DNA from: a virus
Reading direction: 5' to 3' (one strand)
Virus record (IMG/VR): IMGVR_UViG_3300022839_000006
Coordinates: 144,231 to 208,230 of that record
DNA: 64,000 nucleotides
Shown in pieces: positions 10,070 to 59,664 of the stretch; positions within the stretch are counted from its first letter, which is position 1, and the number at the start of each line of letters is the position of its first letter. The notes under the pieces were generated by a model. That model searched no databases and had not been told where the DNA came from. It saw only the letters and a program-made list of their open reading frames with translations. Both the position numbers and the translations under genes were made by a program.

Positions 10070-10510
10070 CTATTGTTGTTCCCAGGGAAATGTGACCCAG
10101 GGCGCATCGGCTGGGATCAACATGGCTGTCACATCACTGTTGAATATGCTATCTACTTTTGTAACAAGTGATGCGTATACGACGTTGTCTGTGCCGCCAT
10201 ACACATTGTTTATTGAGTTAAAAGTATGACCAGTATCATTGATGTCGTCAACAAATACAACTCTTTTACCTGATTTTATACCTTCTTTGAGTTCAGAGTT
10301 GTGCTCACACTTCTGAACATCGCGTGTTTGCCACACAATAGTTTGGAGCGGCAACTCAAGATGGTGTGATAGGTAAAGAGCAGGAAGAAGCCCCCCTCTT
10401 GTAATTCCTACAATAATGTCAGGACTATGTGTTTCGACGTGCGTCCTGAGGTGTTTACACATGAGATCAATATCATTGTAGCTGATATGCATTTTAGCGA
10501 CTGTGCTCAT
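10070..10510 (-). CDS. Phosphoribosyltransferase-domain protein
   Basis: A 146-aa type I phosphoribosyltransferase: IIVGITRGGLLPALYLSHHL (residues 32-51) and the PRPP-binding loop VVFVDDINDTGHTF (residues 84-97). It is close in layout to hypoxanthine/xanthine phosphoribosyltransferases and to small PRTases found in phage nucleotide and deazaguanine clusters. The place between queE and folE suggests purine salvage for the modification pathway, but the substrate cannot be read from the sequence. Confidence 0.82.
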   Translation of the reverse strand: MSTVAKMHISYNDIDLMCKHLRTHVETHSPDIIVGITRGGLLPALYLSHHLELPLQTIVWQTRDVQKCEHNSELKEGIKSGKRVVFVDDINDTGHTFNSINNVYGGTDNVVYASLVTKVDSIFNSDVTAMLIPADAPWVTFPWEQQ

Positions 10511-28740: not shown

Positions 28741-28935
28741 ATGAAATGTGCAATCATCACTTCCGTCCTGCTTCTATCAGCTTGTTCTTCGCCATCGATT
28801 ACAGACCTCGATAAACGCCTTCGTGCCGAGGAAGATTTCCGCTCACACCAAATGTATCTCGAAGAACTGTACACTAAACATGACCCTGAGTTTGTAGATG
28901 ACTGCATCTACCACAATCTCAGTTGTGAGTTTTGA
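28741..28935 (+). CDS. Small lipoprotein
   Basis: 64 aa: MKCAIITSVLLLSACSSPSI has a signal peptide and the lipobox LSAC, so the mature protein would start at Cys15 and be lipid-anchored. The rest is acidic and helical (LDKRLRAEEDFRSHQMYLEE), ending NLSCEF. Size and form fit an outer-membrane spanin subunit or a superinfection-exclusion lipoprotein. No partner inner-membrane spanin is seen next to it. Confidence 0.72.
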   Translation: MKCAIITSVLLLSACSSPSITDLDKRLRAEEDFRSHQMYLEELYTKHDPEFVDDCIYHNLSCEF

Positions 28936-28993
28936 AACGACACGTGCTAGAAATAACAGCAAAAGAAGACATATTACAAAAGAGGGCGTGGAA

Positions 28994-30235
28994 ATGAAAA
29001 AATATCTTGTAGGTGGTGCAGTTCGCGACATGCAAATGGGTATTGAGCCTAAAGATCTAGATTATGTTGTAGTAGGTGCTACACATGAACAAATGATTGC
29101 TAGTGGGTTCGAGCACGTTGGTGCCGATTTCCCCGTGTTTCTACATCCTGTTACGAGTGATGAGTATGCGCTGGCACGACGTGAAAAGAAGACAGGCGTA
29201 GGATACGTCGGATTCACGTCTGAATTTGGTGTGGGTGTGACCCTGGAGGAGGATCTAGGGAGGAGAGACATTACTGTTAACAGCATGGCATATGACATTG
29301 ATGAAGGACTAATCGATCCGTTCAACGGTCAAGACGATGTTGCTAACAAAGTTCTTCGTCATACCGGCACTGCCTTTGTTGAAGATCCTGTTCGTGTTCT
29401 CCGGATCGCACGACTTCGCGCACGATTTGGCTCGGAGTGGACAGTTGCACCTGAGACAAAGGTTCTAATTTATCGTATGGCCAAATCGGGCATTCTCAAT
29501 GAGCTGCAAGCAGATCGTGTGTGGAAAGAAATGAGCCGTGCACTGATGGAGCCAAATCCACAGCTTTTCTTTGACACACTACTTGAGTGTGATGCGCTTC
29601 ATGTTATATTTCCTGAAATCTACAAACTGCTGACCGCACTGGAAAGTAACCGTTGGCACCCAGAGAAAACAGCGCTAGCACATACAATGCTTGTGCTCGA
29701 GCAATCTGCAAGGTTTGATTTTCCTCTTGATGTACGCTTTGCGTGTCTCGTTCATGACATTGGAAAGGGACTCACACGTTTTGAGAATCTTCCAAGTCAC
29801 TTTGGCCATGATGTCAATGGGGTGGCTCTTGTAGAAGCGTTTGCAAACCGAATTTCAGTTCCTGCAAAAATTCGTGACCACGCGAAGAAGGCAACACGCT
29901 ACCATATGAGCATGCATAAACTCAGTACGTTGAACGACAAGACGTTTGTTAAGATGTTTGATGCTATGAGTGTTAAGAACGACCCACGCAGCGTAGAGGT
30001 TTTACTTTGCGTTGGTATTTGCGACGAGAGAGGACGTCTTGGCTCTGAAAACAATTCTATTGACCACCTCAACGATCTGACCACGTTGTTTGAAGCATAT
30101 GACAGCGTGAAGTTTACTAATGTTTTCCCAAACGGTCAAACAAACGTCAACAAGATCAAAGACGGAATGTTCAAGGCGAGAATCCAAGCGATTAAATCAG
30201 CCAGAGCCTCTATCCGATCTGATTGTAAATTATAA
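28994..30235 (+). CDS. cca: CCA-adding tRNA nucleotidyltransferase
   Basis: Adds or repairs the 3' CCA of tRNAs. The 413-aa protein starts MKKYLVGGAVRDMQMGIEPK with the GGxVRD motif, then DLDYVVVGAT (catalytic D-x-D), EDLGRRDITVNSMAYD, and DPVRVLRIARLRARFG. The C-terminal half has an HD domain (HDIGKG near residue 253), as in E. coli Cca. The start at 28994 follows GAGG. Phage copies are rare. A role in maturing or repairing the unusual tRNAs of this phage is likely, since some lack an encoded CCA. Confidence 0.94.
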   Translation: MKKYLVGGAVRDMQMGIEPKDLDYVVVGATHEQMIASGFEHVGADFPVFLHPVTSDEYALARREKKTGVGYVGFTSEFGVGVTLEEDLGRRDITVNSMAYDIDEGLIDPFNGQDDVANKVLRHTGTAFVEDPVRVLRIARLRARFGSEWTVAPETKVLIYRMAKSGILNELQADRVWKEMSRALMEPNPQLFFDTLLECDALHVIFPEIYKLLTALESNRWHPEKTALAHTMLVLEQSARFDFPLDVRFACLVHDIGKGLTRFENLPSHFGHDVNGVALVEAFANRISVPAKIRDHAKKATRYHMSMHKLSTLNDKTFVKMFDAMSVKNDPRSVEVLLCVGICDERGRLGSENNSIDHLNDLTTLFEAYDSVKFTNVFPNGQTNVNKIKDGMFKARIQAIKSARASIRSDCKL

Positions 30236-31961: not shown

Positions 31962-32138
31962 ATGCAAAAAGAAACACGAGCTCTGATTCATACAATCAAC
32001 AACAATTATTTCACACCTATCAGTTTGTATTCTAAAACTGATAGGGTGGTGGCGAAACTCTGTCCCAAAATTGGGAACACAGAAGGTAAAAAGTACATCC
32101 GCATTTCTTTAAACGGATCTGCGTGGACGGGAGCTTGA
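31962..32138 (+). CDS. Hypothetical 58-aa protein upstream of the TilS-like gene
   Basis: MQKETRALIHTINNNYFTPI, ending LNGSAWTGA, with AAAGG at good distance. It overlaps the GTG start of the next gene by 16 bp, so the two are probably coupled. Basic; resembles a small nucleic-acid-binding protein, but that is a guess. Confidence 0.5.
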   Translation: MQKETRALIHTINNNYFTPISLYSKTDRVVAKLCPKIGNTEGKKYIRISLNGSAWTGA

Positions 32139-32743
32139 TTAAAATTCAAGGGAAAATTGACCGTGAAGTAAACGTTGCCTGCTCAGGTGGAATCGACTCC
32201 ATGGCTGTTGTCGACTTCCTGATGCAAAACCACAAAGTGAATTTGTTGTTTTTTGATCATGGCACAGAGACATCAACAGATGCAAGAAACTTCATCACAG
32301 AAAAATTCACACAAAGAGAGTTTTCTGATGATACGCGTGTCGAATTTGGCAACGTCCAAAACACAAAATCGAAATCAGAATCGTGGGAAGAGTACTGGAG
32401 GAATGAACGGTATGCGTGGTTCCACTCATTTGACAGCCCTGTTATTACCTGCCACCATCTTGACGATTGTGTTGAAACGTGGCTGTGGTCATCCATTCAC
32501 GGGAATGGTAAGATTATCCCATATGCAAACCTAAACGTCATCCGTCCGTTCCGCCAGAACAGAAAAGCAGAATTTGCCAACTGGGCAAGACGTAAAGATG
32601 TGTCATGGATCGAAGACGTGTCCAATCAAGATGTGAAATATATGAGAAACTTCATTCGTCGTGATCTGATGCCAAAAGCATTGGTTGTCAACCCTGGACT
32701 GCACAAAGTTGTGGAAAAGAAGGTTGGGGCAGATGCACCCTAA
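32123..32743 (+). CDS. tilS: TilS-like tRNA(Ile)-lysidine synthetase (PP-loop ATPase)
   Basis: Cellular TilS changes C34 of tRNA-Ile(CAU) to lysidine so that it reads AUA. The 206-aa protein has the PP-loop VACSGGIDSMAVVDFL near residue 18, ITCHHLDDCVETWLW near 108 and the TilS signature SWIEDVSNQDVKYMRNFIRR near 160. Only the N-terminal catalytic domain is present (E. coli TilS has about 430 aa), as in other short TilS forms. A GTG start is used. The phage encodes a CAU tRNA at 45140, the expected substrate. Confidence 0.82.
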   Translation: MDGSLIKIQGKIDREVNVACSGGIDSMAVVDFLMQNHKVNLLFFDHGTETSTDARNFITEKFTQREFSDDTRVEFGNVQNTKSKSESWEEYWRNERYAWFHSFDSPVITCHHLDDCVETWLWSSIHGNGKIIPYANLNVIRPFRQNRKAEFANWARRKDVSWIEDVSNQDVKYMRNFIRRDLMPKALVVNPGLHKVVEKKVGADAP

Positions 32744-44198: not shown

Positions 44199-44230
44199 AA
44201 GAAGTAATAATCGTGGTCCTTTCGTCTAAT
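44199..44230 (+). repeat. 32-bp direct repeat, copy 1
   Basis: AAGAAGTAATAATCGTGG and the following 14 bases recur at 45057-45088 with one mismatch. The repeat carries the first 16 or so bases of a tRNA (GGTCCTTTCGTCTAAT). Confidence 0.85.
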
Positions 44231-44237
44231 TAATAAC

Positions 44238-44363
44238 GGACCATTAGCTCAGTTGGTTAGAGCAGCGGACTTTGGACAGAGGATTTTAAGTCCTGTGAAG
44301 TGCGAATCTTCTATGTCAACAGTAATCCGCGTGTCCTAGGTTCGAATCCTAGATGGTTCACCA
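44238..44363 (+). tRNA. tRNA-Gln(TTG) with a 49-nt insert in the anticodon loop
   Basis: Acceptor GGACCAT/ATGGTTC, D-stem GCTC/GAGC, anticodon stem GCGGA/TCCGC, T-loop TTCGAAT and CCA are all present. After CTTTG (positions 32-36) the sequence runs 49 nt (44275-44323) before AA and TCCGC. The insert folds by itself: outer GACA/TGTC and an inner T-arm-like GAAG-TGCGAAT-CTTC. Without the insert the loop is CTTTGAA. The insert lies at the place of archaeal and eukaryotic tRNA introns (36/37 or 37/38). Confidence 0.75.
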
Positions 44364-44412
44364 ATAATTGATGTGGAGGAGGTTGAGATACTTTTTGTCA
44401 ATACCAAATAAC

Positions 44413-44499
44413 GGAAGATGATTTAATCTGGTGATTAAGACTGATTGCTAATCAAATCGTGGAGAAATCCATGGGGTTCAATTCCTCCTTCTTCCGCCA
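44413..44499 (+). tRNA. tRNA-Ser(GCT)
   Basis: Class II tRNA with a long variable arm (TCGTGGAGAAATCCATG), anticodon loop centred on GCT, acceptor GGAAGA/TCTTCC, and G-CCA encoded. Confidence 0.85.
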
Positions 44500-44518
44500 A
44501 TAACAAAGTATATTTTGC

Positions 44519-44641
44519 TCTTGTTTAGCTCAGTTGGTAGAGCGCCTGACTGTGGATACTAAAGGTAAATTGTTCAGTTCGATTCTGAAAGTATCAAAAG
44601 TAATCAGGTTGTCGCAGGTTCGAGCCCTGCAACAAGAGCCA
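44519..44641 (+). tRNA. tRNA-His(GTG) with a 47-nt insert in the anticodon loop
   Basis: Acceptor TCTTGTT/AACAAGA with G73 and CCA; D-stem GCTC/GAGC; anticodon stem CCTGA/TCAGG; T-stem GCAGG/CCTGC. After CTGTG come 47 nt (44555-44601), then AA-TCAGG. The insert starts GATAC, ends GTATC-AAAAGT, and contains a perfect T-arm (TTCAG-TTCGATT-CTGAA). The insert has the same place and plan as in the Gln gene 160 bp upstream. No G-1 is encoded. Confidence 0.75.
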
Positions 44642-45056: not shown

Positions 45057-45088
45057 AGAAGTTATAATCGTGGTCCTTTCGTCTAATG
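45057..45088 (+). repeat. 32-bp direct repeat, copy 2
   Basis: Second copy of the 44199-44230 repeat (one mismatch), directly downstream of a promoter. Confidence 0.85.
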
Positions 45089-45113
45089 GGTTAAGATCCT
45101 ATCTAATTGATAG
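45072..45113 (+). other. 5' tRNA fragment (D-half plus short hairpin)
   Basis: GGTCCTTTCGTCTAATGG looks like the 5' half of an Asp/Glu-type tRNA, then CTATC-TAATT-GATAG forms a hairpin. No T-arm or 3' acceptor follows. A tRNA remnant or half. Confidence 0.5.
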
Positions 45114-47056: not shown

Positions 47057-47060
47057 ATGA

Positions 47061-47100
47061 TCACTGTTCGTCCGTGGGTTCAGACCCTTTGTAGTAATAA
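47061..47100 (+). pseudogene. Shortened copy of the 44829 tRNA-like sequence
   Basis: TGATCACTGTTCGTCCGTGG and TAATAATAAACAAGG match 44826-44911, but the anticodon and T-arm part is deleted. Part of a duplicated block. Confidence 0.6.
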
Positions 47101-47107
47101 TAAACAA

Positions 47108-47180
47108 GGTTCTGTAGCTCAACTGGATAGAGCAAAAGTAAGGGAGTAGGTTATAGGTTCGAATCCTACCTAGCCTACCA
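47108..47180 (+). pseudogene. Chimeric tRNA without an anticodon arm
   Basis: The 5' part (GGTTCTGTAGCTCAACTGG) matches tRNA-Arg(TCG) at 44911. The 3' part (TCCTACCTAGCCTACCATTA) matches the CAT tRNA at 45140 and its flank. Between them AAAAGTAAGGGAGTAGG replaces the anticodon arm. A product of recombination between array members. Confidence 0.65.
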
Positions 47181-48434: not shown

Positions 48435-48556
48435 GCCCATTTGGCGGAATGGTAGACGCCTGAGACTTCTACGATGGTTTTAAAATTGTTTGGGACCATC
48501 GCTAAAAATCTCATGTCCTTAGTGGCGTACCGGTTCGAGTCCGGTAATGGGTACCA
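48435..48556 (+). tRNA. Leu-type tRNA with a 36-nt insert in the anticodon loop
   Basis: Class II body of Leu type (D-arm GGCGGAATGGTAGACGCC, long variable arm), acceptor GCCCATT/AATGGGT, A-CCA encoded. Anticodon stem TGAGA/TCTCA encloses 43 nt instead of 7, with a perfect CGATGG/CCATCG stem flanked by CTA repeats. Removing 36 nt can leave CTTAAAA (TAA, Leu), or CTTCTAA (TCT) if cut at the 37/38 position. Confidence 0.68.
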
Positions 48557-50188: not shown

Positions 50189-50701
50189 ATGAAAAAATGT
50201 TATGTCATGGTGGGTGTTCCTGCCAGTGGAAAATCAACATTTGTGAAAAATGTCATTTCTGCTGATCCGGATTCGTACTTTGTATATAGCACTGATCAGT
50301 TTATTGAAGATGCTGCTACTCATTTCAATTCAACGTACAATGAAATGTTCGAGAATAATATCAAGGGGGCAACTGCCTCGATGAATCAGATGTTGGAAGA
50401 AGCGGTTGCTGATGAACGTCAGTGGATTATCTGGGACCAGACAAATCTAGGCATCAAGAAACGGAAGTCAATCATCAACAAGATGAAATCCGTGGGTTAT
50501 TCTGTTGAGTGTGTTAGTTTTACACCTCCAGAAACAGAAAATGAACGTGCTGAATGGCACCGACGTCTAGGGTCTCGTCCAGGTAAGACTATCCCAGACC
50601 ATATTCTAAATAGCATGATGAAAAACTATCAGAAGCCAGAATTGTCAGAGGGGTTCGACGACATCACGACGTATGATATGTTTGGCACTGTGATCACGTG
50701 A
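50189..50701 (+). CDS. Polynucleotide-kinase-like P-loop kinase
   Basis: 170 aa: MVGVPASGKSTFVKNVI (Walker A) near residue 7, STDQFIEDA (acidic pair near 34), WIIWDQTNLGIKKRKSII near 86, and a C-terminal IPDHILNSMMKNYQKPE that recalls T4 Pnk (VPIDVLRSMYKSM). It corresponds to the 5'-kinase domain of T4 polynucleotide kinase without the 3'-phosphatase. A role in RNA 5'-end repair is inferred, and it would fit the tRNA-rich neighbourhood. Confidence 0.8.
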   Translation: MKKCYVMVGVPASGKSTFVKNVISADPDSYFVYSTDQFIEDAATHFNSTYNEMFENNIKGATASMNQMLEEAVADERQWIIWDQTNLGIKKRKSIINKMKSVGYSVECVSFTPPETENERAEWHRRLGSRPGKTIPDHILNSMMKNYQKPELSEGFDDITTYDMFGTVIT

Positions 50702-59091: not shown

Positions 59092-59664
59092 ATGTCATTA
59101 AAAGAGCTGACGTGGGAAAATCACAAAAAGGTCGAGAGAACTGTTTTTGTGAAACGCCTTCTCAAAAAACATCTTTCACAACACCAATATTATGTATATC
59201 TTTGTAACCTACACCACGTGTACGTACATCTTGAAGGATGTGCGAGACAAGTAGGTGTGCTCGAAGGCATTGAAGACATTTCAAGAGCTTCCAAGATGAA
59301 CGACGACATGTTGGAGATGGAGAGCTCAAATGCTTCGTTTGTAGTTCCTACAATGTGTAAAGCTACATACGCTTACATCGACCATTTAAACGCCATCAAA
59401 GAGGATTACGATTCCCTTTTAGCTCATGTTTATGTCAGACACATGGGCGATCTGTCTGGTGGCCAAATTATCAAAAAATACGTGCCAGGACCTTCGACAC
59501 ATTATGAATTTGACTGTGAGGTAGATGACTTGAAAGCTAGAGTGAGAGAAAAATTACATGATGGTCTTGCAACTGAAGCTAACCTGTGCTTTGAATTTGT
59601 CTACAAAGTTTTTGATGAAATTGAAGTGGTGTTTGCTGACATGGAATCGCCGACCAAACCATAA
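59092..59664 (+). CDS. ho: Heme oxygenase
   Basis: Opens heme to biliverdin, CO and iron. 190 aa: LTWENHKKVERTVFVKRLLK at the N-terminus (the heme-ligand His region), CNLHHVYVHLEG, YVRHMGDLSGGQIIKKYVPG near residue 121 (distal-helix glycines), and FVYKVFDEIEVVF near the end. It should supply biliverdin to the PcyX-like reductase 13 kb upstream. AGGAG lies 7 nt upstream. Confidence 0.92.
   Translation: MSLKELTWENHKKVERTVFVKRLLKKHLSQHQYYVYLCNLHHVYVHLEGCARQVGVLEGIEDISRASKMNDDMLEMESSNASFVVPTMCKATYAYIDHLNAIKEDYDSLLAHVYVRHMGDLSGGQIIKKYVPGPSTHYEFDCEVDDLKARVREKLHDGLATEANLCFEFVYKVFDEIEVVFADMESPTKP

What the first reader, a model, noticed from the sequence alone, without database searches (positions are those of the whole stretch)
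44238..44641. Two tRNA genes (Gln, His) with matched 47-49 nt inserts in the anticodon loop
Both genes are otherwise normal cloverleaves. Each is opened at the same point, directly after anticodon position 36 or 37. Both inserts begin GA (GACA, GATAC), close with the complement (TGTC, GTATC), end A(A/C)AGT before AA, and carry an internal T-arm-like hairpin (TGCGAAT and TTCGATT loops). Shared place, length and plan make random damage unlikely. They are far too small for group I or II introns, and bacterial systems are not known to cut archaeal-type tRNA introns. They could be a new class of mini-intron, a decoy for anticodon nucleases, or a tRNA fragment inserted twice.
Basis: seen in the sequence. 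Interest (0 to 1): 0.92.

Follow-up and report, generated by a model that had tools for sequence, protein, structure and literature searches.

The report
Phage tRNA introns resembling tiny tRNAs
Two tRNA genes of this large phage are interrupted in the anticodon loop by short inserts that fold like miniature tRNAs; related inserts sit at the same place in tRNA genes of many other giant phages, including a cultured Agrobacterium phage, which points to an overlooked class of tRNA introns that may be cut out by ordinary tRNA-processing enzymes.

Summary
Excised precisely, the genes are tRNA-Lys(UUU) (44238-44363) and tRNA-Asn(GUU) (44519-44641), not Gln and His. Both inserts lie between anticodon nucleotides 35 and 36 and are the only Lys and Asn genes found in the 208-kb phage record. 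A third interrupted gene, tRNA-Leu(UAA) at 48435-48556, was missed; its insert is a plain hairpin. Each of the pair imitates a tRNA: acceptor-like stem, linker, T-arm, 4-nt tail. A covariance model built without the window finds them at E about 3e-18 (Asn) and 2e-5 (Lys). Close relatives interrupt tRNA-Asn in six other large phages. One is the isolate Agrobacterium phage Atu_ph07, published as lacking only Asn and Thr tRNAs; I find both there, interrupted. A wider sister group (34 unique cases) has inserts that are whole or minimal tRNAs ending in CCA, always after nucleotide 34, 35 or 36; excision exactly at CCA restores a 7-nt loop. Preferred mechanism: RNase P cuts the 5' side, tRNA 3'-end processing the 3' side, and a phage RNA ligase joins the exons. 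Excision and enzymes are inferred; the structural class is shown. 'Enigmatic' tRNA introns were reported in Lak megaphages in 2019.

The parts
44238..44273 (+). tRNA-Lys(UUU) 5' exon, ends CTTT (nt 35)
   Evidence: spliced gene called tRNA-Lys by ARAGORN, best phage matches tRNA-Lys (39)
44274..44322 (+). 49-nt insert in tRNA-Lys: GGACAGA / linker with its own hairpin / GAAG-TGCGAAT-CTTC / TATGTCA / ACAG
   Evidence: R2 model built without the window finds it, E about 2e-5 (73); same plan in the Atu_ph07 tRNA-Lys (68)
44323..44363 (+). tRNA-Lys 3' exon, starts TAA (nt 36-38), ends ACCA
44519..44553 (+). tRNA-Asn(GUU) 5' exon, ends CTGT (nt 35)
   Evidence: U1:A72 and G73 as in tRNA-Asn
44554..44600 (+). 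47-nt insert in tRNA-Asn: GGATACT / AAAGGTAAATTG / TTCAG-TTCGATT-CTGAA / AGTATCA / AAAG
   Evidence: R2 model, E about 3e-18 (73); covariation with 7 relatives
44601..44641 (+). tRNA-Asn 3' exon, starts TAA, ends GCCA
48435..48556 (+). third interrupted gene, tRNA-Leu(UAA); 36-nt hairpin insert at 48469-48504 after U34 (boundaries ambiguous by about 1 nt)
   Evidence: no T-arm, not found by R2 (73); a similar hairpin insert in another phage Leu gene, L590 (90)
28898..30235 (+). CCA-adding enzyme (tRNA nucleotidyltransferase)
   Evidence: Pfam PF01743, PF12627 and HD
32123..32743 (+). PP-loop protein, probably TilS (tRNA-Ile lysidine synthetase)
   Evidence: Pfam PF01171 (109)
50189..50701 (+). 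P-loop kinase, polynucleotide-kinase-like
   Evidence: Pfam PF13671 (109)

Best explanation
The two inserts are introns of tRNA-Lys(UUU) and tRNA-Asn(GUU) that imitate a tRNA. The acceptor-like stem stacked on a T-arm marks the intron's ends for the cell's tRNA end-processing machinery. RNase P cuts at the start of the acceptor-like stem, right after nt 35, leaving a 3'-OH on the 5' exon. A tRNA 3'-end endonuclease (RNase Z type) cuts after the 4-nt tail, leaving a 5'-phosphate on the 3' exon. A phage RNA ligase (Rnl1 or Rnl2 type) joins the exons, which are held together by the outer cloverleaf. Shown: structure, conservation, insertion site, exon integrity, ligase genes. Inferred: that excision happens, and which enzymes do it. 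Step confidence: belongs to a conserved structural class 0.95; removed as an intron 0.85; RNase P at the 5' site 0.6; tRNA 3'-processing at the 3' site 0.5; phage ATP-dependent RNA ligase 0.6.
For: (1) Conserved family: the same insert in tRNA-Asn of six other phages of 162-490 kb. The pattern that fetched them required no stem pairing, yet 97.7% of pair cells pair and 14 of 16 pairs have changes on both sides, 0 of 500 shuffles. (2) R2, built without the window, finds window Asn and Lys (73) and several CCA-ended inserts in other phages. (3) Of 3000 tRNA-like elements tested for excision, 36 (34 unique) reveal an outer tRNA at nt 34-36, with 7-nt loops and usable anticodons only when N73+CCA goes too; random joins gave 1 in 30,000. 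(4) The 5' junction is mostly U(-1) (30/34) and G(+1) (27/34); U(-1) exceeds expectation, P=0.0026. This is the known preference of bacterial RNase P (own knowledge). (5) RNase P needs the T-loop and acceptor stack while the D-loop is dispensable (PMC4919913). RNase Z of several prokaryotes can cut just after an encoded CCA (PMC7479834). T4 Rnl1 seals tRNA anticodon-loop breaks (PMC3400036). (6) Records of at least 80 kb with such inserts: 25/26 have an RNA-ligase match, versus 15/27 large comparison records, Fisher P about 0.001. (7) Atu_ph07 was published as lacking exactly Asn and Thr tRNAs; both are present, interrupted. (8) In this phage record the interrupted genes are the only Lys, Asn and Leu-UAA tRNAs found.
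Against: No RNA data. The window inserts lack CCA (tails AAAG, ACAG) and have a G1.A72 mismatch, so they are imperfect RNase P and RNase Z substrates; the model built from CCA-ended inserts (R1) does not find them. The 5-7 bp stems make a shorter stack than a normal tRNA. Bacterial RNase Z is often inhibited by CCA and normally cuts after N73, so the 3' cut is the weakest step. This phage's Rnl1 is split into two reading frames, and its Rnl2-like protein scores just below the Pfam cut-off. RNA ligases are common in large phages, and the comparison records were not a random sample.
Confidence: 0.55

Rival explanations
1. True introns, but cut by a dedicated or unknown nuclease (phage- or host-encoded) that reads the anticodon-stem/intron junction, then ligated. 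The tRNA-like fold only keeps the ends close together or stable.
For: In the window type the intron's last G and the base before it can pair with C32 and U33, leaving a UAA bulge, a loose bulge-helix-bulge look (sequence). The tail is NNG instead of CCA. Hairpin-only inserts in Leu and Thr cannot be RNase P substrates. In Lak-A1 the intron begins about 30 nt before the inner tRNA.
Against: No archaeal-type splicing endonuclease (PF01974) in 22 phages with such inserts, while the search rings in four archaeal controls. T-arm, D-loop-like GG linker and exact CCA boundaries are unexplained by this reading.
Confidence: 0.25
2. The insert stays in: the RNA is a decoy or sponge for anticodon nucleases, or another regulatory RNA.
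For: It sits in the anticodon loop, the target of anticodon nucleases; Lys and Asn are among targets known in bacteria (own knowledge).
Against: The anticodon is interrupted, so the nuclease target is destroyed. Exons keep full cloverleaves, identity elements and a joined anticodon; these are the only Lys and Asn genes found in the record. The Atu_ph07 tRNA set is complete only if they are spliced.
Confidence: 0.08
3. Self-splicing or self-cleaving mini-ribozyme.
For: Some phage mini-inserts have conserved cores, and several huge phages with another insert type carry RtcB.
Against: No match to any catalytic RNA family in Rfam in the window. Variable linkers leave little conserved sequence beyond the T-loop, GG and tail. 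The phages with the window-type insert carry ATP-dependent ligases, and no RtcB was found in this phage.
Confidence: 0.06
4. Decaying tRNA genes with random or passenger insertions.
For: The cluster contains tRNA fragments and pseudogenes, and relatives show rapid turnover.
Against: Covarying stems across distant phages, identical insertion point, intact exons.
Confidence: 0.03

Closest known systems
Lak megaphage 'enigmatic' tRNA introns (Devoto et al. 2019, PMC6784885)
   Same: Small unclassified inserts in phage tRNA anticodon loops, one predicted to contain a tRNA. In Lak-A1 I find tRNA-Thr(UGU) and tRNA-Asn(GUU) whose introns end exactly after the discriminator base of an inner tRNA.
   Different: Lak introns are 93-114 nt with an extra hairpin and spacer before the inner tRNA and no encoded CCA. 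R2 does not find them. No structural class or processing route was proposed in the passages I read.
Group I introns in bacterial tRNA anticodon loops
   Same: Position; the Leu(UAA) insert lies after U34, the place of the cyanobacterial group I intron (own knowledge).
   Different: 36-49 nt, far below a catalytic core; Rfam finds none.
Archaeal and eukaryotic tRNA introns (bulge-helix-bulge, splicing endonuclease, RtcB or Trl1)
   Same: Short, anticodon loop, structured.
   Different: Junction after nt 34-36 rather than 37; no PF01974 endonuclease in 22 phages; no canonical 4-bp helix flanked by two 3-nt bulges.
T4 anticodon-loop repair (Pnkp and Rnl1)
   Same: A phage ligase joins tRNA halves broken in the anticodon loop (PMC3400036).
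   Different: There the break is made by a host anticodon nuclease, with no insert to remove.

Membership tests
Window-type (type B) mini-tRNA inserts: tRNA-Asn/Lys, tail A-NNG | Junction between nt 35 and 36, 3' exon TAA | tested here: met
   window Asn and Lys, six other phages
Window-type (type B) mini-tRNA inserts: tRNA-Asn/Lys, tail A-NNG | 6-bp stem with unpaired position 1/72, stacked on a T-arm | tested here: met
   covariation; R2 hits E about 3e-18 (Asn) and 2e-5 (Lys). The Lys stem is weaker (one internal mismatch, 4-bp T-stem).
CCA-ended nested tRNA inserts (type A) | Inner element ends N73-CCA exactly at the 3' exon | tested here: not met
   window tails are AAAG and ACAG; model R1 does not find them
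CCA-ended nested tRNA inserts (type A) | Acceptor stem plus T-arm in the anticodon loop; exact removal leaves a 7-nt loop | tested here: met
   R2 also hits type A inserts
Group I or II self-splicing introns | Catalytic core matching Rfam | tested here: not met
   only tRNA families over threshold
Archaeal/eukaryotic protein-spliced tRNA introns | tRNA splicing endonuclease PF01974 present | tested here: not met
   0 of 22 phages; host genome unknown
Archaeal/eukaryotic protein-spliced tRNA introns | Canonical bulge-helix-bulge at the junctions | tested here: inconclusive
   only a 2-3 bp loose version can be drawn (sequence)
RNase P substrates | Cleaved at the acceptor-like stem | not testable with these tools
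   needs an in vitro assay; U(-1) and G(+1) fit
Any intron | Removed from RNA and exons joined | not testable with these tools
   no transcript data

The most novel reading that the evidence does not exclude
A further way of splicing RNA: the intron is a pseudo-tRNA, excised by the ordinary tRNA end-processing enzymes (RNase P and RNase Z) and the exons sealed by a phage RNA ligase, used widely by giant phages for Lys, Asn, Gln, Ile, Leu, Glu, Arg, Thr and Pro tRNAs.
Probability: 0.45. Interest if true: 0.95.

Novelty: new variant of a known kind. Interest (0 to 1): 0.87.

Why it matters
tRNA introns outside group I/II were thought absent from bacteria and their viruses; the few seen in Lak phages were called enigmatic. 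A defined class with a mechanistic hypothesis and a cultured example makes the question testable now. It would explain 'missing' tRNAs in giant-phage genomes, give phage RNA ligases a second job besides repair, and show RNase P used to splice. Standard annotation misses these genes (ARAGORN here; tRNAscan-SE in the Atu_ph07 paper), so phage tRNA repertoires are undercounted.

Tried and rejected
Rejected: His and Gln identity; group I/II; archaeal-type endonuclease; private decay. The genome scan of 84,980 prokaryote species gave only two true nested tRNAs, both on MAG contigs and probably phage.

Full report
WHAT IS THERE. The window is part of a 208,230-bp T4-like phage record. At 44238-44363 and 44519-44641 lie two full cloverleaves opened in the anticodon loop by 49 and 47 nt. 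ARAGORN misses them; the Rfam tRNA model reaches across the inserts. A third interrupted gene is at 48435-48556.

ISOTYPES CORRECTED. Removing 44274-44322 gives a 77-nt tRNA-Lys(UUU). Removing 44554-44600 gives a 76-nt tRNA-Asn(GUU). Removing 48469-48504 gives tRNA-Leu(UAA). The spliced Asn gene is 98% identical over 58 nt to tRNA-Asn of Agrobacterium phage OLIVR5, and the spliced Lys gene best matches tRNA-Lys of T4-like phages at 86%. The acceptor end of the Asn gene (U1:A72, G73, CCA) also fits Asn. An uninterrupted tRNA-Asn with a similar 3' half stands in the related phage contig L409 at 10186-10261. Intact tRNAs in this record are Ala, Arg (2), Gly (2), His, Leu-UAG, Met, Phe, Thr, Trp and Val. 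So Lys, Asn and Leu-UAA were found only in interrupted form.

ANATOMY. Asn: CTGT | G GATACT - AAAGGTAAATTG - TTCAG TTCGATT CTGAA - AGTATC A - AAAG | TAA. Lys: CTTT | GGACAGA - hairpin-bearing linker - GAAG TGCGAAT CTTC - TATGTCA - ACAG | TAA. That is an acceptor-like stem, a linker with a D-loop-like GG motif (Asn), a T-arm, and a 4-nt tail.

RELATIVES OF THE SAME TYPE (type B). A DNA pattern requiring only a T-loop, GTAA and the outer T-loop returned eight loci. Six carry the insert in tRNA-Asn at the identical place and one in tRNA-Ile(GAU); L507 has a second one in a class II tRNA; one hit (L509) did not fit. The pattern did not ask for stems, yet the predicted stems hold in 97.7% of cells, 14 of 16 pairs have changes on both sides, and no shuffle reaches this. 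Model R2, built from seven of these without the window, finds the window Asn insert at about 3e-18 and the Lys insert at about 2e-5 (E-values rough). One member is the isolate Agrobacterium phage Atu_ph07 (490,380 bp). [quoted passage not shown] I find tRNA-Asn at 323,905-324,023 and tRNA-Lys at 68,159-68,280, both with type B inserts, and tRNA-Thr(UGU) at 335,108-335,213 with a hairpin insert. The two 'missing' tRNAs are thus present but interrupted.

WIDER CLASS (type A). Scans of IMG/VR gave many phage tRNAs whose anticodon-loop insert is itself a tRNA, from complete down to 44 nt (acceptor, GG linker, T-arm, CCA). I took 3000 tRNA-like elements in the fetched viral loci, removed each with 0 to 8 following bases and asked whether a tRNA appears across the join. 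At offset 4 (N73+CCA) 36 cases (34 unique) give a proper tRNA with the junction after nt 34 (17), 35 (14) or 36 (3). Other offsets mostly give wrong loop sizes or implausible anticodons. Random joins gave 1 in 30,000. Caveat: two of the scans required CCA and a T-loop spacing, so the CCA frequency is biased; the coincidence of CCA with the exact exon boundary is not. R1, built from nine minimal type A inserts, does not find the window; R2, built from type B, does find several type A inserts. The two types share architecture; common descent is not proven.

LAK PHAGES. The published Lak introns fit the same principle at the 3' side. In Lak-A1, tRNA-Thr and tRNA-Asn introns of 114 and 93 nt end exactly after the discriminator of an inner tRNA; these outer genes do not encode CCA. 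Their 5' side has an extra hairpin and spacer.

MECHANISM. The 5' junctions prefer U before and G after the cut (30/34 and 27/34; U excess P=0.0026), as bacterial RNase P does (own knowledge). RNase P needs the T-loop and acceptor stack but not the D-loop (PMC4919913). RNase Z of several prokaryotes can cut after an encoded CCA (PMC7479834). These two enzymes leave 3'-OH and 5'-phosphate (own knowledge), the ends that Rnl1/Rnl2 ligases join; T4 Rnl1 is known for sealing anticodon-loop breaks (PMC3400036). The window's phage encodes an Rnl1-like protein, split into two frames, and an Rnl2-like protein next to it. RNA-ligase matches occur in 25 of 26 insert-bearing records of at least 80 kb and in 15 of 27 large comparison records; several matches are weak and the comparison is not random. 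Weak points: no CCA and a 1-72 mismatch in type B, hairpin-only inserts, and the 3' cut.

NOVELTY. Literature searches found only the Lak report. I rate the structural class a new variant of a known but unexplained kind. If the processing route is right, it is a new way of splicing.

Noticed in passing
L023, L028, L067, L078, L080, L081, L090, L092, L094, L096, L127 (tRNA genes): A second kind of tRNA insert in very large phages, 55-70 nt, conserved '...GTTACTT' 3' end, often inside the 5' strand of the anticodon stem. The two larger records tested (G019, G020) carry RtcB, unlike the window type.
   Followed up: partly
L407:16270-17199: In a 95% relative the same tRNA-Lys 5' half is split after CTT by an ORF with homing-endonuclease-like features behind a T4-like late promoter (TATAAATA); its 3' half survives in a chimeric tRNA.
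   Followed up: partly
L408:18050-19210: tRNA-Tyr split at the anticodon loop by about 1 kb with a reverse-strand ORF; a near-identical contig (L409:11273-11360) has it intact.
   Followed up: partly
G000:62683-64229 (L313:2684-4230): Rnl1 gene split into two reading frames (202 and 185 aa) about 380 bp apart; in G082 the same gene is split with almost no gap. Possibly a two-part ligase.
   Followed up: partly
window:45250-45936 and 59092-59664: Ferredoxin-dependent bilin reductase inside the tRNA cluster (Pfam PF05996) and an ORF that looks like heme oxygenase (not tested): phage bilin synthesis genes.
   Followed up: partly
window:44040-44148, 44210-44235, 45068-45100, 47060-47180: Many truncated tRNA fragments, including a tRNA-Asn copy lacking its anticodon arm and repeated 5' pieces 'TGGTCCTTTCGTCTAAT'.
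   Followed up: no
L507:1952-2080: A class II (long variable arm) tRNA with the same insert; splicing gives CTGTTAA, an odd anticodon for such a tRNA.
   Followed up: no
L329-L398 (genome-contig hits): Only two prokaryote assemblies showed a true nested tRNA (L352 Mollicutes MAG, L378 Clostridium MAG), probably phage contigs.
   Followed up: partly
Sinorhizobium phage AP-J-162 (PMC11242549): Published as lacking tRNA-Tyr; a candidate for another overlooked interrupted gene.
   Followed up: no
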